A stretch of DNA of 64,000 nucleotides from Planctomycetota bacterium (lineage in GTDB: Bacteria; Planctomycetota; Phycisphaerae; Phycisphaerales; SM1A02): positions 248,001 to 312,000 of the forward strand of contig JAIOPG010000005.1 of assembly GCA_021414025.1 (NCBI GenBank), in the 5' to 3' direction. Made by a program: the position numbers and the translations under genes. Shown piece after piece: positions 44,914 to 64,000 of the stretch. The notes under the pieces were generated by a model, which was given only the letters and a program-made list of their open reading frames with translations, was not told where the DNA came from and made no database searches. The first letter of the stretch is position 1. Each line of letters starts with the position of its first letter.

Positions 44914-45019
44914 GTGAAGGCCTCCTTAAGGTCTGGAAGGAGGCAGTTCATTCACAATGCGTTCGGGTCGTGTTGCCGCTTCATGGGCGGCGTGTCATGG
45001 TTGCATTAAGAAATGGTTT

Positions 45020-45060
45020 GCAAAAAGAAAGCCACCCGGCCCCAAAAGGGACCGGGTGGT
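45020..45060 (-). terminator. strong intrinsic terminator after porin 3
   Basis: CCACCCGG-C-CCC (45032-45043) pairs with GGG-A-CCGGGTGG (45048-45059) around a 4-base loop. On the minus strand the stem is followed by CTTTCTTTTTGC, a T-rich tract. It therefore ends transcription coming from porin 3 and separates it from porin 2. Confidence 0.75.
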
Positions 45061-45118
45061 TGGTCTGAAACCCTGACAACTACTGGGTCAGGATGGATAA
45101 CGTCTTAAGTGAAGTGAC

Positions 45119-46654
45119 TCAGAACACCAGCTGCATCTGGCCGCGGAACACCCATTCACCACCAGCATTGATCGAATTGCTGGTCTGGTAGTTCGTGCCG
45201 GCAACTGAAGAGCCGTAGAGACCACCCGTGAACAGGATGCCGTTGTTGGACCATCCGGTGTCGAACGTGAACTTCACGTTCTTGTTGAGATACCAGTTCA
45301 AGCCGCCCGTGATAATGATGTTCTGCTGGGCAGCCAACGGACTCTGGAAAGCAACCGCGGGGTTGTTGCCACCCTGGCTGGCGGTCTCGTACCACTCAAA
45401 GCGGCCGAACAGCTCCATGGTGTCAGTGATGAAGTAACCACCCTGGACGATGGCACCGTAGCTCTGAATCGCGCTACCGTTACCACCAGCAAACGCACCA
45501 CCGAGGCCGGGAAGGCTGCTGGTGAAGTTGCCGACGAACGCACCGTACAGGTTCGCTCCGCCGAGATCCCAGGACGCATCAACGCAGTACGAGAAGTAGC
45601 CCGAATCCGTGTTGGATCCACCACCGGTTGGAAGCGGATTGGTTTGAACACCACCGTGCTGCCAGTTGAATCCCGCACCGAGCATGAGTCCCTGAGCATC
45701 GCCACGCATGCTGGTCATGTCGTTGAACTGATTCCAGTTGCCGAAAGCGAGCCACTGGAGGCGACCCGTGAAGGCGTACTGGGTGAAACCACCCGTTCCA
45801 CCCGTGGTGGAGCTGTTGGCCGTCGCAAAGTTGGCATTGTTGCCACCATTGTTGAAGCTGATCATGCCCATCAGGTTGTCGTTCTTGCCGGTCAACATCA
45901 CACCGTCAGTCCAACCCGTTGAGAACAATTGATTCACGATGGAACGCTCAACCGCGAGCTGATTCTTCGAGCTGACCAGTTCCTCGTGGAGGAACGGGCT
46001 CTTGAATTGGCCCATCATCAGACCCCAGCCATTGCCGAAATCCTTGTTGATGTAGGCATCTTCAAGATTCGCAGTGGAAGAGGTACCGTTGCCGTTGCCT
46101 GAAGCAACAGTCGATTCAGAGACGTTGTATGGGCTGCCGTTGGCATTGTTCTGGGCCGGGAGATAAGCCAAGGTCATCTTGTAGGTCCAGCTCGGATCGA
46201 CCACGTTGCCGGAGAAGTTGAGCTTCGCGCGGCGAATCTCAAATCCCTTTGCAACGCGAGTCTGGTTCGGTTGCGGAACGGTCGTTGTCCAACCAGCGTT
46301 GCTCAGGCGGCTATAGGCATAGCGAACCTGGACTTGGCCGTTGACCTGCAACTTGAAGTTTCCATCGGGGCTGGCAATGAAGAATCCATTGTTGTAGCCC
46401 GAGGTTGCTGCAGTTGCCTGAAGGCTCGAGCGGGTGTCCGCATCGGCCATCACGTCTTGAACCACGCCGCGAATCTGGCTTGCCCGCTCTTCGGTCAGCC
46501 ACTTGTCGCCGTTCTGGCTCTTCAATTCGGAGAGTTCCTTCTTCAACTCAGCGATTTGCGCATTCGTGTCGTTCGTCGCCTCGACAGACGCCGCAGCAGC
46601 CGTACCGGCAACCGCAGTGAAAGCGAGAAGACCAACAAATTTTGTCAAACTCAT
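45119..46654 (-). CDS. OprP-like porin, paralogue 3
   Basis: 511 residues from ATG 46654, chosen because AGGAG lies 8 bases upstream and a signal peptide (SLTKFVGLLAFTAVAGTAAA) follows; the open frame up to 46873 is leader DNA. Seen: coiled coil (AQIAELKKELSELKSQ), WLTEERASQIRG, FFIASPDGNFKLQVNG, and the end FRGQMQLVF. Base composition is clearly lower in G+C than neighbouring genes, with codons such as GTT, AAC, ACC chosen differently from the host average; strong expression or recent acquisition could explain this. It has its own terminator and a long AT-rich upstream region, so it is probably a separately and strongly controlled major porin. Confidence 0.9.
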   Translation of the reverse strand: MSLTKFVGLLAFTAVAGTAAAASVEATNDTNAQIAELKKELSELKSQNGDKWLTEERASQIRGVVQDVMADADTRSSLQATAATSGYNNGFFIASPDGNFKLQVNGQVQVRYAYSRLSNAGWTTTVPQPNQTRVAKGFEIRRAKLNFSGNVVDPSWTYKMTLAYLPAQNNANGSPYNVSESTVASGNGNGTSSTANLEDAYINKDFGNGWGLMMGQFKSPFLHEELVSSKNQLAVERSIVNQLFSTGWTDGVMLTGKNDNLMGMISFNNGGNNANFATANSSTTGGTGGFTQYAFTGRLQWLAFGNWNQFNDMTSMRGDAQGLMLGAGFNWQHGGVQTNPLPTGGGSNTDSGYFSYCVDASWDLGGANLYGAFVGNFTSSLPGLGGAFAGGNGSAIQSYGAIVQGGYFITDTMELFGRFEWYETASQGGNNPAVAFQSPLAAQQNIIITGGLNWYLNKNVKFTFDTGWSNNGILFTGGLYGSSVAGTNYQTSNSINAGGEWVFRGQMQLVF

Positions 46655-47051
46655 TGCATGTGCTCCTGATATAAAAGTGATTTCGGTACTTGCCCTGACC
46701 CTGGGTTCGTACCTTTGCGTCATCCACCCTGCCGTCGGTGTCCATGCCCCATTAGGCATAGACCGGAGGGAGTTCTCAACGTATCGGTCGAAATGGACCG
46801 GCAAGTTGAGGGCGAGATCATAGTGTTGTAAAAATTTCTGTGTGGTGGTTGGTGGAAAATTATTCGTTTCCACGCTGAAAAGTGGCTTTTTTCACACCAT
46901 CCTGTGGGCGCAACTCTTTGCAGTACAACATATTGGGTGATTTTCAACCATTTATTTTTTGTTTTACAAATGATTTCATTCGATTTTGATCAAAAAAGTC
47001 AAATTGTTCCTTCCTTTTATGCGGTCTTGAAGCGGTTCGGGTCATGGGAAC
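46655..47051 (-). promoter_or_regulatory. 397-base AT-rich control region upstream of porin 3
   Basis: No gene is seen here. The part 46930-47010 is the most AT-rich of the window, with A- and T-runs about 10 bases apart (for example near 46942, 46953, 46961, 46984, 46992) as in curved DNA, and a perfect 12-base palindrome TTTTGATCAAAA at 46984-46995. On the minus strand TTGACT (46997-47002) with TGAAAT 18 bases on, and a separate TATGAT (46817-46822), are candidate promoter pieces. A leader of 150 or more bases before porin 3 is therefore likely, and regulation at DNA or RNA level is possible. Confidence 0.4.
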
Positions 47052-58807: not shown

Positions 58808-59731
58808 TCAGCTCGCTTCGCGCGGGTGGTAGCGGCGCAGCACCTCGCGCAGCCGGTTCTGGTCCACATGCGTGTAGATCTCGGTGGTGGCGATGTCCTC
58901 GTGGCCCAGCAACTCCTGCACCACGCGAAGGTCGGCGCCGCCACCCAGCAAGTGTGTGGCGAAGGAGTGCCTCAGCTTGTGCGGATGCACGCCGTGAAGG
59001 CCGGAAAGCGTCGCGTATTTCTTGACGATCTGCCAGACTGCGACGCGTTCAATGGGCTTGCCGCTGAAGGAGAGAAAGAGGCGGAATTTGTCGCGCCCGT
59101 CGCCAAATCGGGTCAGGCCGGGGCGGACTTCCTTCACGTACTTCCCGATCGCCTCGATCGCCGGCTCGCCCAGCGGAACCATGCGCTGCTTGTTGCCCTT
59201 GCCGATCACCACCAGGCAGCCGAGCGTGGTGTTGAAGTCGTTCATCTTGAGCGTGCCCACTTCGCTGGCCCTCAGTCCCGCCGCGTACATCGCCTCGAGC
59301 ATGGCGCGGTCGCGCCGCCAGAGGTCGCCGGTCTGGGCGTTGGGGGCCTCCACCAGTTTGCGCATCTGGCTGGGCGTCAGGGTACCGGGAAGTCGGCGCC
59401 ACTTGTGGGGGCGCTCCAGCAGCCGCGCCGGGTCGCGCTCGATCTTTCGCTCCGCCTGCATCCACCGGAAGAAGACCCGCATGGTGGCCAGGTGGCGCGT
59501 CACCGTGCTGGATTCCATCCCGCGCTCGCGGCGCAGCTTCTGCAGATGCTGTGCCAGATGCTCCATGCGGACGGCGCCGGGCTTGGTCACGCCGGCGAGA
59601 ATCAAGTCTTCTTTCATGTAGCGAAGGTCGCGGCCATAGGCCTCGAGCGTCGCGGGGCTCAATCCGGTTTCGATCCGCGCCCAGGCGAGAAAGTCACGCG
59701 CCGCGTGATCGAAGGGAGAGGTTCCTTCCAT
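58808..59731 (-). CDS. tyrosine recombinase (XerC/XerD type)
   Basis: 307-residue site-specific recombinase that resolves chromosome dimers at dif. Seen: SAM-like N-terminal domain (DFLAWARIETGLSPATLEAYGRDL) and the catalytic residues: Arg in GLRASEV, Lys in GKGNKQRMVPLG, HKLRHSFATHLL with the His-x-x-Arg, and the tyrosine in TTEIYTHVDQNRL. Length and lack of extra domains fit the chromosomal Xer enzyme rather than a phage integrase. XerC and XerD cannot be told apart by reading. Its first 38 bases overlap the end of a small cysteine-rich gene, so their translation is coupled. The low-GC defence genes begin 500 bases upstream. Confidence 0.9.
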   Translation of the reverse strand: MEGTSPFDHAARDFLAWARIETGLSPATLEAYGRDLRYMKEDLILAGVTKPGAVRMEHLAQHLQKLRRERGMESSTVTRHLATMRVFFRWMQAERKIERDPARLLERPHKWRRLPGTLTPSQMRKLVEAPNAQTGDLWRRDRAMLEAMYAAGLRASEVGTLKMNDFNTTLGCLVVIGKGNKQRMVPLGEPAIEAIGKYVKEVRPGLTRFGDGRDKFRLFLSFSGKPIERVAVWQIVKKYATLSGLHGVHPHKLRHSFATHLLGGGADLRVVQELLGHEDIATTEIYTHVDQNRLREVLRRYHPREAS

Positions 59732-59981: not shown

Positions 59982-60226
59982 GGCAGTGGTGAGTATGGAA
60001 TCGGATGGAATGAGTACAGAACTGTAAATATAGCAAGGCCGGGCATTTGCTCAATTCGACGAAGCGTCGGGCGACCCGCCCAGCGGTTCCAAAAAGGCAG
60101 TTCTCTGGAAATTCTTCGATCCAACAAGTTTTTAGGGGCCGTACGCCGCCACCTATTTGGGGAGGCACAACTCTCGCGCAGGTTCAAAACGGTTACAGAG
60201 TCATTTGGATCGAGCAACCCAAAGTA
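59982..60226. other. 245-base boundary gap between core genes and low-GC island
   Basis: No gene, tRNA or repeat is visible. Base composition begins to drop here. The minus-strand -10 box CATACT for the small cysteine-rich gene lies at its left end. No attachment-site duplication can be judged because only one end of the island is in view. Confidence 0.4.
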
Positions 60227-61315
60227 TTAGTCGGACGTCTGCCTAGTGGATCCAATCAAAAGGACAATGGCTTCAGAAGGGTCGCCAGCCGGGTTGATAT
60301 CTCCGCGGACCGATTCGGGCAACTCGATTTCAAATCGTACGGATTCTGTCCGAACATGAGAGAAGTCAGCAACATCGGGTCGGCGCATGACTCGGATTTG
60401 CTGATCAGACATGTCGTACATACGCAAAAACCGCACTTCCCACTGTTGTGCAAACATGGGCCAGTTTCGCATAGATAAGTGGTCGTAGCCGCCCGGCTGG
60501 CCCGGACTTATCCCGTAGATTCGAAGGCACTGAAGTAGGGAACCCTTTATCAGGGTGGATTGCTCGGGCGAGAGGTCATGAGCGAATAAGTCACTTACTA
60601 GTTCAACCTGACTCGCAACACTCTTACCGCGACCTTCTGCCGGAATCAGCCCAATGCTCAACAGGAATAAATTTCCATCGCCTTCACCAGTTCCTCGAGG
60701 TCCCGAAGTCACTTGATCAAGATTCGAGATGTGGTGTCGAGAACGATCGAATCGTGTTGCCTTCACCTCAATGGACGCCATCGCGCCGCTAAAGTCTCGC
60801 GCTCCGTGCCGGTAGCCAGTCCAAGAGTCGAGAATGCGACGACGCCATTCAAGAGCAGGATGGCGGACCAGAATCTGCTCCAGCAGAATCAATTCTCCGA
60901 GTAACCCGAGCGCCAACTCCTCCCCAACCCCAGCTCGCTCGAGGAACAACTCAATTAACGGCTCCGCTCGAGTGAATGCCTCCTGCGGATTTGACAGAAA
61001 CTGGTGTCGAAGAAGCTCCTCCAGCACGAGGGCAACAACTCCGACAAAGTGCGGCTCCCCCGGAATCAAGATTCGGAATGCAGAGAATCTTCGCCCACTG
61101 CTCGTCTGCCAATTGTCACCAGTGATGTACTTCCGAATGATCGTCGACTCGACATTGAGCGGCTCAACTGCAAGAAACACCTCAAAGCGCCCCCCCGTGT
61201 CACGCGCGACACCCAGTGTCCGATCATCGGACAACCAAACTGGATTTCGCTCATCTATTGATGATGGGCGGGTTGTACCGCTGATTAGTTCGCGCAACGA
61301 TTCGAAATTATTCAT
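60227..61315 (-). CDS. DUF4420 PD-(D/E)XK-type protein of an antiphage system
   Basis: 362 residues from ATG 61315 (AGGA seven bases upstream; the earlier ATG 61384 lies inside the Z1 gene). Seen: GELILLEQIL helix block, ARDFSGAMASIEVKAT with Asp174 ... Glu183-x-Lys185, the PD-(D/E)XK nuclease signature, then HHISNLDQV, the family block. So a nuclease-like core is intact. This family (DUF4420) is found beside Z1-domain ATPases in MZA-type defence, where MutL-like, Z1, DUF4420 and AIPR proteins act together. Here it starts 11 bases after the Z1 stop. Base composition is much lower in G+C than the housekeeping genes to its left, pointing to transfer. No AIPR gene follows. Confidence 0.85.
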   Translation of the reverse strand: MNNFESLRELISGTTRPSSIDERNPVWLSDDRTLGVARDTGGRFEVFLAVEPLNVESTIIRKYITGDNWQTSSGRRFSAFRILIPGEPHFVGVVALVLEELLRHQFLSNPQEAFTRAEPLIELFLERAGVGEELALGLLGELILLEQILVRHPALEWRRRILDSWTGYRHGARDFSGAMASIEVKATRFDRSRHHISNLDQVTSGPRGTGEGDGNLFLLSIGLIPAEGRGKSVASQVELVSDLFAHDLSPEQSTLIKGSLLQCLRIYGISPGQPGGYDHLSMRNWPMFAQQWEVRFLRMYDMSDQQIRVMRRPDVADFSHVRTESVRFEIELPESVRGDINPAGDPSEAIVLLIGSTRQTSD

Positions 61316-61326
61316 TTGGGATCCTG

Positions 61327-64000
61327 TCAATGCTGTACTGGTCGCAACACACCAATCTGATCGGGGCCGCCGGCTGGTAAACATACACCGATCGCAAGTC
61401 GGGGATGACCTGATGGGTGAGCGAGGAGATGAAATAGAATCAACCCATCTTCACCAATTGCTCTCCAGGGCGCGTCATCAATGTTGATACGAGGCGGATT
61501 GCGATTTAATCCGGTTCGGTGGTAATCAAAAAACTGATCCCCGAAATAGGCCCCAGGTCCTCCCGTCGGGTTACGAGTTCCCCAAGTAGCGACAAGTTGT
61601 GAACGCACTTCATCGATCTCGCGTTCCATCAGGCGGATCCGCCAATCGTTTCCCAAGTCCGTGCCAACACGATCCAAAGACGTTCCCGCAACCACTGGTC
61701 CCTGTCCAAATCGCAAACCAATCGAAAATCTCGGGCAGCGTCGCGCTCTCTCTCCCGGCGACAGATGCCCCCAAGGAACTTCGGGTTTGTCATTCGGATA
61801 AAGCCCAATCCCAGCATGTTCTCGACAAAGAGCCCATAATCGGAAATATGCAGCGATGGAATATGGACATTTGGTTGGAAGGAATTTGTCTCTCGAATCG
61901 CCCCCCCGGCGAGTGGCTTCAAGACCGGGACGGAACAGGAAATTTTGGGCAGGATCAAGTTTCAGTGCCCGCTCAATACTTTCCCAACGATGATGTTCGT
62001 CAGCACTTGGGGTCGGATCGTGATCGACAAAGATCATTTCATCGAGCATGTCAGCCACTTCGGAAAGCGAATATTTTGTTTTAAGAATTAATCCGCGCTT
62101 GATTCCCACGGTCACCCCATCCGCATTTCCGGGAGCAAAGCGTTGTTCAACCATTTCAAAATTCGGATCAACACCCGAACCGTCCCAAAATCCCGAGATA
62201 AAGGGAGTGCCTCCAGGAGCGAGCGGAAGCCGCCGCAGATTCTCAACTTTTCCGGTCGGCAGGAAGTTGCGTCCACCAAGTACTTGCGGAGACACACCGC
62301 CCGCATCCGACCCCGCCTTCGCGCGTTCGATATTGATAATTTCAGTACGCAAGGCTTCGTCAGCAGCGTGGTACTGCCGGAAACGGTCTAACTGATCCTC
62401 AAATGCAAAGACCCGACAATACGCGAGCCAAGCACCCCGATACCCAAACCATCGCTGCATCTGCATCTGCGTGTCCGCAAGCGGGGCATCTGGATCTCGG
62501 AGAAAAAGAGTGGTCGAAAGACCCTCGAGAGTTAGTCCACGCGACATGATATTGCCGGCGACGAAGATTGTGCAAAGCGATGTTGGAAGACACCAAGTGC
62601 CATCTGCCTGAAGCATTGGCTCGAAATTTGGAGGCGCGTCTGCCCCGAGAGAACCGTTGACAACTTGCATCTGAATAGATGGCAACACCTCTTCTACGAT
62701 CGCACGTTCCACGATCTCCCAATCCTCTGGTGGCAATTGAATGCCAGCACAACCCGGACGAGCACGAAGAATTTCCGCCGACCGCCGATATGCAGTAAGC
62801 CACGCGGACCACATGTTCCGTTCACGCGTGATTCTAACTGCAAGTCGGTGCCACTCTACTTCGGGGCGCGCCACATCGGCGCCAACGCCCACAATTGGTG
62901 GAATGTGTGGTGACTCATCATGCACCCAAGACTTTACAACTAACTCACCCTCGAATTGCGACTCAACACTGCTGGATGGATTGAAAAGCATCGACGAGAT
63001 AGGCGGCATTATCGCCTTCGCTTCGGTCAGCGTTGAAACTACAACACCACGGGTAGCCACGTATGAACGACTCGATGCAATCAAGCGACAGGCCGTCGCA
63101 ACGATGAATGCACGAAGCGATTCACCCACAAGCTCCATTCGCCGCACTTCCCATTCGGCCCGGGTAAGACCATCTGCATTTTCAAGTCCAATGCACGGCT
63201 GGAATAGTTCAGCAACAGCAGGATAGAACTCGCCGCCGCCGGAATGCCGCTGCGAGATCAACGGCACCGCAAACGACGCCCTGTCTCGAATTTCGGGGGA
63301 TCCCGATGCGCCAGGAGCGCGGATACAAGTGACAAAATCACGCGGACTAAGCGGATTATGATCGTGCTGCAAGAGATTGGCTTGTGGTGTGGCTGTGTAA
63401 GCGAGATAAACAACTCTCAGCTTGTCATGAAACACGCGACTATCACTCGGGCCCCTTGCCCACAGGCCCTCAATCCACCTTGGAAGAAATCGATCCGCCG
63501 GTGCACCTACGGGACCAGCACCAAGAATCGACCCGTCATCGGCTTCGTCGTCAATCACGAGCATCTTTAAGGGCCGATCGATTGTCACCATAGCCCGGTG
63601 CAGAGATTCTCTAAGCGCACTGAGATGATCCGCCTGCTTCATTACAACAGCAACAATTGGATTACCGGCGCGAATGTTTTTTGTCATGCGATTCACGCTG
63701 ACGTCAAACATCTCGCCCGGATTAAATCTCCCGTTAGTGATGTATGCCGTCTCGGGAAGCCAGAGGCGGACTTGCCGCCTTTGAAAATCACTCCCCACAT
63801 CCCACCCATCAAGATCCCGCACCGACCGATCTAGGGTCTGCCGCCAAAGAGACACCCGCGTTCCCGACACCAACACAACGACATCAAACCCATGATCAAT
63901 TGCAAGAGAGGAAACCGCCAACATCGAACCCGTCTTGCCACTCTGTACCGCACCAAGTACGAGTCCAGACACGAGTGGCGCATCATCGCAAGTAAGCCGC
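61327..64000 (-). CDS. Z1-domain ATPase of an antiphage system (5' end beyond window)
   Basis: At least 890 residues; the frame is open to the right edge, so the N-terminus is missing. Seen: GAVQSGKTGSML, the Z1 Walker A (VQSGKT), LVIDDEADDGS as a DE-type Walker B, and near the middle MSRGLTLEGLSTTLFLRD followed by QMQRWFGYRGAWLAYCR, which is the Z1 arginine block. The domain is a helicase-like ATPase. It heads an operon with the DUF4420 gene. Both are rich in ordinary AT-containing codons. In MZA-type systems a MutL-like gene precedes Z1; that would lie beyond 64000. GTG 63972 is an internal codon, not a proven start. Confidence 0.87.
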   Translation of the reverse strand, partial: RLTCDDAPLVSGLVLGAVQSGKTGSMLAVSSLAIDHGFDVVVLVSGTRVSLWRQTLDRSVRDLDGWDVGSDFQRRQVRLWLPETAYITNGRFNPGEMFDVSVNRMTKNIRAGNPIVAVVMKQADHLSALRESLHRAMVTIDRPLKMLVIDDEADDGSILGAGPVGAPADRFLPRWIEGLWARGPSDSRVFHDKLRVVYLAYTATPQANLLQHDHNPLSPRDFVTCIRAPGASGSPEIRDRASFAVPLISQRHSGGGEFYPAVAELFQPCIGLENADGLTRAEWEVRRMELVGESLRAFIVATACRLIASSRSYVATRGVVVSTLTEAKAIMPPISSMLFNPSSSVESQFEGELVVKSWVHDESPHIPPIVGVGADVARPEVEWHRLAVRITRERNMWSAWLTAYRRSAEILRARPGCAGIQLPPEDWEIVERAIVEEVLPSIQMQVVNGSLGADAPPNFEPMLQADGTWCLPTSLCTIFVAGNIMSRGLTLEGLSTTLFLRDPDAPLADTQMQMQRWFGYRGAWLAYCRVFAFEDQLDRFRQYHAADEALRTEIINIERAKAGSDAGGVSPQVLGGRNFLPTGKVENLRRLPLAPGGTPFISGFWDGSGVDPNFEMVEQRFAPGNADGVTVGIKRGLILKTKYSLSEVADMLDEMIFVDHDPTPSADEHHRWESIERALKLDPAQNFLFRPGLEATRRGGDSRDKFLPTKCPYSIAAYFRLWALCREHAGIGLYPNDKPEVPWGHLSPGERARRCPRFSIGLRFGQGPVVAGTSLDRVGTDLGNDWRIRLMEREIDEVRSQLVATWGTRNPTGGPGAYFGDQFFDYHRTGLNRNPPRINIDDAPWRAIGEDGLILFHLLAHPSGHPRLAIGVCLPAGGPDQIGVLRPVQH

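What the first reader, a model, noticed from the sequence alone, without database searches (positions are those of the whole stretch)
60227..64000. Z1 ATPase plus DUF4420 nuclease-like pair in a low-GC segment: core of a probable MZA-type or variant defence system
Seen directly: Z1 signature VQSGKT, DDEADD and GLTLEGL / RWFGYR blocks in one protein, an IEVKAT nuclease block in the next, 11 bases between them, and a fall in G+C to about half. Known: Z1, DUF4420, MutL-like and AIPR genes form the MZA antiphage system. Inference: the pair is a transferred defence module. The downstream AIPR partner is absent because a small cysteine-rich gene and xer follow at once, so either this is a reduced variant or AIPR lies upstream beyond the window.
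Basis: partly seen in the sequence, partly recalled or inferred. Interest (0 to 1): 0.8.

Follow-up and report, generated by a model that had tools for sequence, protein, structure and literature searches.

The report
Four-gene DNA-marking and DNA-cutting island
The gene pair is half of a horizontally acquired four-gene set that probably marks the cell's own DNA with methyl groups and cuts unmarked invading DNA; it is related to the known MZA anti-phage system but uses a different switch protein, and in this genome the switch gene is interrupted by a stop codon.

Summary
The Z1 and DUF4420 genes are real, but they are the last two genes of a four-gene island that runs past the window: C5-cytosine methyltransferase, DUF262 (GmrSD_N) protein, Z1 ATPase, DUF4420 PD-(D/E)XK nuclease, all on the minus strand, 52.9% G+C against about 65%. 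The neighbours are xerD and trpS. These lie 346-600 bp apart in 15 of 15 other congeners, so the island is an insertion in this lineage. It is not MZA: no MutL/GHKL or AIPR gene, and both Mza cut-offs fail by far. One scan gave 79 related loci in five phyla: DUF262 in 75, DUF4420 in 77, methyltransferase in 74, AIPR in none. In other Z1 loci of the phylum, the gene before Z1 was a GHKL ATPase in 9 of 10 scanned, so DUF262 sits in that slot. Best reading: a restriction-modification system whose nuclease is licensed by a DUF262 NTPase. Here DUF262 carries one in-frame TGA, so this copy may be inactive. The core (Z1, nuclease, methyltransferase) was described in 2008 and 2022; I found no paper naming the DUF262 version. 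New variant of a known kind.

The parts
60227..61315 (-). DUF4420 PD-(D/E)XK nuclease (362 aa from the ATG at 61315; the longest ORF starts at 61384 and overlaps Z1)
   Evidence: Pfam PF14390 3.4e-15; E142-D175-E184xK186 invariant in 76 other rows (numbering of the construct window:60227-61318, which starts one codon before the ATG); AF2 pLDDT 90.7; DpnI Z 5.4 and EcoRV Z 4.5, both weak, over 130-346
61327..64000 (-). Z1 superfamily-II-like ATPase; the gene continues outside the window to window-scale 64176 (949 aa, TTG start). The other two island genes lie wholly outside the window on contig C5: DUF262 at window-scale 64182-66284 (likely ATG 66125) with an in-frame TGA at 65154-65156, and the C5 methyltransferase at 66172-67560
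   Evidence: Z1: Pfam PF10593 2.1e-25, Walker A and B motifs conserved in 75 other rows, full ORF. DUF262: PF03235 5.8e-19, stop, gene open through this place in the 72 homologues of A1. Methyltransferase: PF00145 5.1e-59
60040..64000 (.). part of the inserted low-G+C island that lies in the window; the island continues to about window-scale 67705, just before trpS
   Evidence: DNA similarity to 9 of 12 empty sites stops at window 60032 (earlier in the other 3: L131-L133) and resumes at window-scale 67702-67719 in the 12 (alignment of 5 sequences); G+C 52.9%
58808..59731 (-). left flank, not part of the island: XerD recombinase, native (73-86% identical in the 15 other congeners)

Best explanation
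The island is a restriction-modification system of a DUF262 type. SHOWN: four genes (methyltransferase, DUF262, Z1, DUF4420) recur as a unit in distant bacteria, the last three in fixed order, with catalytic motifs conserved in all four; the unit was inserted between xerD (with a small neighbour gene) and trpS; no nuclease domain was detected in DUF262; DUF262 stands where related Z1 operons carry a GHKL ATPase. INFERRED: the methyltransferase puts 5-methylcytosine on a target sequence in host DNA. DUF262, Z1 and DUF4420 form an NTP-driven restriction complex: DUF262 (ParB/Srx-fold NTPase as in SspE, BrxU, DndI) decides whether DNA is self, Z1 translocates or remodels DNA using ATP as the Z1-bearing N-protein of CglI is thought to do, and DUF4420 makes the cut. 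Most likely DUF262 recognises the methylated target and holds the nuclease off, as DndI leaves phosphorothioated self DNA. In this genome the DUF262 gene has one in-frame TGA, so the restriction half is probably off unless the stop is a sequence error.
For: Gene content: DUF262 in 75 of 79 scan loci (3 of the 4 misses lack contig room; the fourth, L106, has a truncated Z1), DUF4420 in 77 of 79 (2 without room), methyltransferase within 6 kb in 74 of 79 (4 without room, 1 not found: L055). Same set on a conjugative plasmid of Neorhizobium sp. EC2-8, where methyltransferase and Z1 look interrupted. Motifs invariant or nearly so in 74-76 homologues. Co-inheritance over 70 rows (69 scan loci and this one): Z1-DUF262 r 0.92, Z1-DUF4420 0.96, DUF262-DUF4420 0.88; methyltransferase against each 0.71-0.78. 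Model of the intact L029 DUF262, pLDDT 89.5: SspE Foldseek E 2.5e-4, BrxU Z 9.0, SspE 8.5, DndI 5.7 over residues 176-642. CglI needs a Z1-bearing ATPase, a nuclease and ATP for cleavage near its site (PMC4267653, introduction and first part of discussion); DndI senses phosphorothioate, hydrolyses ATP and leaves self DNA (PMC11662687, passages). The near-constant presence of a methyltransferase argues against a nuclease that attacks methylated DNA.
Against: No function of this cassette was tested. Nothing shows that the three restriction proteins bind each other; co-inheritance can reflect joint transfer alone. DUF4420 fold matches are weak (best Z 5.4; Foldseek gave no convincing match). I could not find which protein reads the target (null). 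In this genome DUF262 is interrupted. The self-sensing role of DUF262 rests on relatives that sense other marks; BrxU and GmrSD do the opposite and cut modified DNA. A C5 methyltransferase is also near most of the other Z1 loci of the phylum (10 of 13), so its presence is not special to the DUF262 type.
Confidence: 0.68

Rival explanations
1. MZA proper or a reduced MZA: the pair works as in the MzaABCDE system and has lost or displaced its MutL and AIPR partners.
For: Weak similarity of Z1 to MzaC (1.9e-28) and of DUF4420 to MzaD (5.5e-6).
Against: Scores far under the equivalog cut-offs. In the DNA held, AIPR profile: 0 of 79 loci; GHKL profile: 2 of 79 (L080 strong, L096 weak), both outside the DUF262-Z1-DUF4420 trio. 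40 sampled Z1 proteins of the scan set are one side of a branch against 13 others, support 100. So it looks like a sister type with its own four genes, not a fragment.
Confidence: 0.06
2. Modification-dependent (Type IV) restriction: DUF262 detects modified cytosines in phage DNA and switches on Z1-DUF4420, the methyltransferase being a separate or regulatory gene.
For: BrxU, a structural relative of the DUF262 domain, and GmrSD cut modified-cytosine DNA (PMC12707154 passages; PMC10952713 passages).
Against: A C5 methyltransferase lies near the cassette in 74 of 79 loci; an enzyme that attacks methylcytosine would endanger its own host unless it needs a larger modification such as glucosylation.
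Confidence: 0.14
3. Restriction without a DUF262 gate: DUF262 is the sequence reader and the system is an ATP-dependent R-M like CglI with different parts (overlaps with the best explanation in the broad R-M claim).
For: CglI has the same logic of C5 methyltransferase, separate nuclease and Z1-bearing ATPase, with recognition in the nuclease's B3 domain; DUF262 here has large extra N- and C-terminal helical regions.
Against: No known DNA-reading domain was found in DUF262 or DUF4420; no window of the three proteins clearly tracked the methyltransferase target domain.
Confidence: 0.3
4. Decayed remnant: in this genome the island is a dead relic and only the methyltransferase is active as an orphan (compatible with the best explanation for the family).
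For: One in-frame TGA in DUF262; TGA is a normal stop here (XerD and Z1 end in TGA). Other copies look broken too: L101 (Z1 in two ORFs), L106 and L107.
Against: The half after the stop is at least as conserved as the half before it (70% against 59% identity to L029) and the other three genes are open, so any damage is recent; an assembly error is possible.
Confidence: 0.4

Closest known systems
Putative defence system type I of Miller, Stern and Burstein 2022 (PMC9523054; sections 10-11 read; author names recalled)
   Same: Core of a Z1 protein of about 925 aa, a PD-(D/E)XK protein (the text prints DUF4220) and a cytosine methyltransferase; wide spread; linked to DNA repair endonucleases (here a Vsr-like cluster in 11 of 79 loci; two members checked by Pfam)
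   Different: The text gives three further genes for type I and does not name DUF262 (0 occurrences); figure and supplement were not seen, so I cannot say whether one of them is this DUF262 gene
Third operon type of Iyer, Abhiman and Aravind 2008 (PMC2292703; passages read)
   Different: There the operon partner is a MORC or paraMORC GHKL ATPase; DUF262 has 0 occurrences in the main text
MZA (MzaABCDE)
   Same: Homologous Z1 (MzaC) and PD-(D/E)XK (MzaD) proteins
   Different: No MutL-like, no AIPR; adds C5 methyltransferase and DUF262; scores far below the equivalog cut-offs
CglI / NgoAVII restriction-modification
   Same: C5 methyltransferase, separate nuclease, Z1-bearing SF2 ATPase
   Different: Nuclease there is PLD plus B3, here PD-(D/E)XK; CglI is a three-gene system without DUF262
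SspE, BrxU, DndI, GmrSD (DUF262-DUF1524)
   Same: DUF262 NTPase domain with DGQQR-type motif (DGKQR here)
   Different: Those carry or pair with an HNH nuclease; here none was found and the nuclease is a separate PD-(D/E)XK protein
Corynebacterium diphtheriae BH8 island (PMC5379612; one passage read)
   Same: Z1 helicase, DUF4420 and Dcm-like methylase in one acquired island between housekeeping genes
   Different: Has an EcoRII-like nuclease and an HTH-fused methylase; three further proteins unclassified, DUF262 not named

Membership tests
MZA | MzaC and MzaD at equivalog level | tested here: not met
   99 bits against cut-off 1500; 25.8 against 420
MZA | AIPR protein (MzaE) | tested here: not met
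   none between xerD and trpS; profile finds 0 of 79 related loci in the DNA held
MZA | MutL/GHKL ATPase next to Z1 | tested here: not met
   DUF262 in that place; GHKL profile in 2 of 79 loci, outside the trio
Miller 2022 putative system type I | three core genes: Z1, PD-(D/E)XK, C5 methyltransferase | tested here: met
Miller 2022 putative system type I | identity of the three additional genes | not testable with these tools
   only the main text could be read
Miller 2022 putative system type I | linked DNA repair endonuclease | tested here: inconclusive
   Vsr-like cluster in 11 of 79 loci; none seen in this island
CglI-type R-M | C5 methyltransferase plus Z1-bearing ATPase | tested here: met
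CglI-type R-M | PLD nuclease with B3 domain | tested here: not met
   nuclease is DUF4420; no PLD or B3 Pfam hit in any of the island proteins
GmrSD/SspE/BrxU | DUF262 domain with QR, DGQQR, FxxxN motifs | tested here: met
   QR 201-202, DGKQR 246-250, FxxYN 379-383, invariant or nearly so in 74 other rows; in this genome a stop lies between the second and third motif
GmrSD/SspE/BrxU | DUF1524 HNH nuclease in the same or partner protein | tested here: not met
   no DUF1524 hit in the two halves or the other island proteins, nor in the intact DUF262 proteins of L029 and L055
restriction-modification system (broad) | linked methyltransferase and nuclease | tested here: met
restriction-modification system (broad) | cuts unmodified, spares modified DNA | not testable with these tools
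   needs experiment

The most novel reading that the evidence does not exclude
DUF262 has displaced the GHKL (MORC/MutL-type) ATPase in the Z1-DUF4420-methyltransferase family and works as a reader of the host's own methylcytosine that uses NTP hydrolysis to switch the Z1-nuclease complex off on self DNA: a methylation-based counterpart of the phosphorothioate-sensing SspE and DndI systems, in which the sensor and the nuclease are separate proteins.
Probability: 0.3. Interest if true: 0.7.

Novelty: new variant of a known kind. Interest (0 to 1): 0.5.

Why it matters
Two unrelated NTPases, GHKL and DUF262, seem to fill the same position in one restriction family. Comparing them would show what the GHKL proteins (relatives of MutL and of eukaryotic MORC ATPases, Iyer et al. 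2008) contribute: if a DUF262 sensor can stand in for them, self/non-self licensing is a likely shared job. The cassette is self-contained (four genes), occurs in many named isolates and on a conjugative plasmid, and no model of PADLOC-DB 2.0.0 or NCBIfam that came up is specific to its DUF262 protein.

Tried and rejected
Tried without result: PDB sequence search with Z1 (0 hits) and with the DUF262 and DUF4420 profiles (no convincing hit). Foldseek with the DUF4420 model: no meaningful match; the second look gave DpnI and EcoRV at Z 4-5.4, above unrelated rows at Z 4 and less. Search for the target-reading region by correlating 30-residue windows with the methyltransferase target domain: best partial r 0.35, scattered over the three proteins. 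In the same call the target domain was little more variable than the rest (0.43 against 0.38 in the 40-member class; 0.51 against 0.42 in the 24-member class), which hints at one conserved target per class. Viral contigs: the Z1 scan found no relative; the DUF262 profile scan found 52 loci whose aligned ranges cover the DUF262 domain only (neighbourhoods not examined). Phage records: 6, each with 12-14% of the DUF262 protein matched.

Considered and rejected: that AIPR lies just beyond the window (it does not); that the small cysteine-rich gene belongs to the island (its DNA is shared with empty-site congeners); recoding of TGA (it ends XerD and Z1); a contaminating contig (xerD and trpS are 73-86% and 82-89% identical to those of congeners).

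Limits of counts: the 79 loci came from one scan with this Z1 protein, so they are its nearer relatives by design and say nothing about how common the type is among all Z1 proteins; several loci are short. Neighbours were called by BLASTP E 1e-3 against this island's proteins. Rows shorter than 400, 560, 800 and 300 aa (methyltransferase, DUF262, Z1, DUF4420) were dropped before alignment: 0 of 74, 1 of 75, 4 of 79 and 1 of 77. 70 rows with all four proteins, this genome included, entered the co-inheritance and tree counts. Two overlong DUF262 rows, L076 and L083, were left out of A1; L103 was left out of A2. The tree used 40 of 76 Z1 rows of the scan set, picked by me for spread, and 13 others; it was a quick search with several long branches. 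Of the 14 other Z1 genomes I took loci from 13 (G270, a fragment, was left out). GHKL: of 10 upstream neighbours scanned, 9 are GHKL and one (L119, open at the contig edge) has no family; L116, L120 and L121 were not scanned that way, and the GHKL profile finds none in L116 and L121 and a weak hit away from Z1 in L120. The paper library holds open-licence papers only. One search (Z1 domain, DUF262, DUF4420) found no paper with both Z1 domain and DUF262; two searches found none either; one search listed only 40 of 642 papers, mostly unrelated words. Z1 together with the name GmrSD was not searched.
Full report
WHAT IS THERE. The window is bases 248001-312000 of contig C5 (335,142 bp) of a 2.8-Mb genome. 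The two genes of the finding are confirmed by Pfam (Z1 2.1e-25, DUF4420 3.4e-15), with 11 bases between them. The Z1 gene is cut by the window end. I took the rest of the contig. Beyond the window, on the same strand, come a DUF262 gene (GmrSD_N, 5.8e-19; window-scale 64182-66284) and a C5-cytosine methyltransferase (5.1e-59; 66172-67560), then trpS (67691-68818) and a CPBP-family protease. The four genes have 52.9% G+C, the flanks 64-65%.

ISLAND. Z1 occurs in 1 of 16 genomes of the genus, this one. XerD and TrpS matches were found in all 16. In the other 15 they lie on one contig, 346 to 600 bp apart by my subtraction of the listed positions; here they are 7,962 bp apart. Twelve of these empty sites were fetched. 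DNA similarity stops at window 60032 in 9 of the 12 (earlier in L131-L133, the more distant ones) and resumes at window-scale 67702-67719. The small cysteine-rich gene beside xerD is on the shared side. So the four genes were inserted in this lineage. Its surroundings differ: no XerD or TrpS match in the 19 kb taken.

A RECURRING FOUR-GENE UNIT. One scan of genome contigs with the Z1 protein gave 79 loci, whose record titles place them in Actinomycetota, Pseudomonadota, Myxococcota, Planctomycetota and Chloroflexota (phyla of named genera recalled). Counted by BLASTP of the island proteins: DUF262 beside Z1 in 75 of 79 (3 misses lack room; L106 has room but a truncated Z1), DUF4420 in 77 of 79 (2 misses without room), methyltransferase within 6 kb in 74 of 79 (4 without room; L055 has none found). 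The next most common neighbour is a small Vsr-like endonuclease, 11 of 79 (two members by Pfam). A conjugative plasmid of Neorhizobium sp. EC2-8 carries the same set, annotated by NCBI as cytosine methyltransferase (two pieces), DUF262, Z1 (shorter than the match) and PD-(D/E)XK motif proteins. Pairwise distances over 70 rows agree closely among Z1, DUF262 and DUF4420 (r 0.88-0.96) and less with the methyltransferase (0.71-0.78). Methyltransferases fall into two main classes, 40 and 24 of 70 rows, and four small ones; on the Z1 tree the class label needs at least 7 changes. The first class sits upstream on the same strand in 38 of 40; the second in 10 of 24, otherwise downstream or on the other strand. 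This fits a restriction trio that travels together with a more exchangeable methyltransferase, though joint transfer alone could give the same pattern.

NOT MZA; DUF262 IN THE GHKL PLACE. MzaC and MzaD equivalog cut-offs fail by far. A profile built from five AIPR proteins finds none in the 79 loci, and a profile from nine GHKL ATPases finds 2 (L080 strong, L096 weak), both outside the DUF262-Z1-DUF4420 trio. As a contrast I took 13 of the 14 other Z1 loci of the same phylum. The gene just upstream of Z1 was a GHKL ATPase (HATPase_c_3) in 9 of 10 scanned; the tenth (L119, open at the contig edge) had no family. AIPR was found in 4 of the 13, a C5 methyltransferase in 10 and DUF4420 in 8. The DUF262 profile found nothing in these 13. 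Forty sampled Z1 proteins of the scan set form one side of a branch against the 13, support 100 (quick tree with some long branches). So the change between GHKL and DUF262 happened once among the sampled proteins, in a direction I cannot tell. Iyer et al. 2008 noted that GHKL families replace each other in these operons (PMC2292703, passages).

HOW IT MAY WORK. Catalytic motifs are conserved: methyltransferase PCQ, ENV and QxRxR; Z1 Walker A and B; DUF4420 E-D-ExK; DUF262 QR, DGKQR and FxxYN (motif names recalled or from PMC12137116 passages). The model of the intact L029 DUF262 (pLDDT 89.5) matches BrxU (Z 9.0) and SspE (Z 8.5) over the NTPase domain and DndI (Z 5.7) more widely; Foldseek's only hit with E under 0.001 is SspE. 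No DUF1524 nuclease was found in it. The DUF4420 model (pLDDT 90.7) gives weak matches to DpnI and EcoRV over the catalytic part. In CglI a Z1-bearing ATPase and a nuclease act together and need ATP to cut near the target of a C5 methyltransferase (PMC4267653, introduction and first part of the discussion). In DndI, sensing of the self mark raises ATP hydrolysis and releases self DNA (PMC11662687, passages). I therefore infer: methyltransferase marks self; DUF262 licenses; Z1 moves or remodels DNA; DUF4420 cuts. Which protein reads the target is unknown.

STATE OF THIS COPY. The DUF262 gene has a single in-frame TGA at window-scale 65154-65156; both halves are in one frame. It falls in a variable stretch between conserved blocks. 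The downstream half is 70% and the upstream half 59% identical to L029, so there is no sign of longer decay. TGA is a normal stop here. Either the system is freshly inactivated or the base is an assembly error. Other copies in the scan look broken too (L101, L106, L107).

WHAT IS KNOWN. The Z1/RE-fold/methylase theme dates from Iyer et al. 2008. Miller et al. 2022 predicted a two-type system with Z1, PD-(D/E)XK and cytosine methyltransferase as core (PMC9523054, sections 10-11); type I adds three genes not named in the text and is linked to DNA repair endonucleases, so this cassette may be part of it. PMC5379612 describes a similar island in Corynebacterium diphtheriae (passage). No paper in the library held Z1 domain and DUF262 together (searches added none). 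NCBIfam has no model for the DUF262 protein (1 of 72 members with a weak domain hit); PADLOC gives partial matches to NsnA, PD-T4-2_A and a REase_II model in 72 of 72. I rate it a new variant of a known kind.

Noticed in passing
window 60191-60201 and window-scale 67581-67591 (contig C5): An 11-bp direct repeat flanks the four genes closely; a match this long had frequency 0.005 in Markov-shuffled ends of the two stretches I had chosen. It is not in the 12 empty sites within one mismatch. Could be an insertion trace, an operator, or chance.
   Followed up: partly
L134:11887-13928; L082:13889-15930; also L059, L069, L095, L099: A two-gene pair follows or neighbours the cassette in a few loci (clusters of 5 and 3 of 79 loci) and a similar pair on the Neorhizobium plasmid; the first protein (L082 and L134 scanned) resembles PD-Lambda-5_A and PDC-M38A models, the second has no family.
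   Followed up: partly
L080:5155-6759: A Sphingomonas locus that holds the DUF262-type trio and, on the other strand beside its methyltransferase, a GHKL ATPase of the type seen in related Z1 operons.
   Followed up: no
L101, L106, L107: Apparently broken copies of the cassette: Z1 in two ORFs, a truncated Z1 without DUF262, and Z1 plus DUF262 in several pieces.
   Followed up: no
L002:17793-18914 (window-scale 74793-75914): A ParB-like gene (named by eye) in a second short low-G+C stretch (50-54%) beyond trpS.
   Followed up: no
window 45001-47000: Another low-G+C stretch (51-56%) inside the window.
   Followed up: no
methyltransferase, window-scale 66172-67560: The methyltransferase matches PADLOC's DruM2 model PDLC00034 at 1e-137 over residues 3-434, so a scan by that model alone could label this gene as Druantia (system name recalled).
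   Followed up: no
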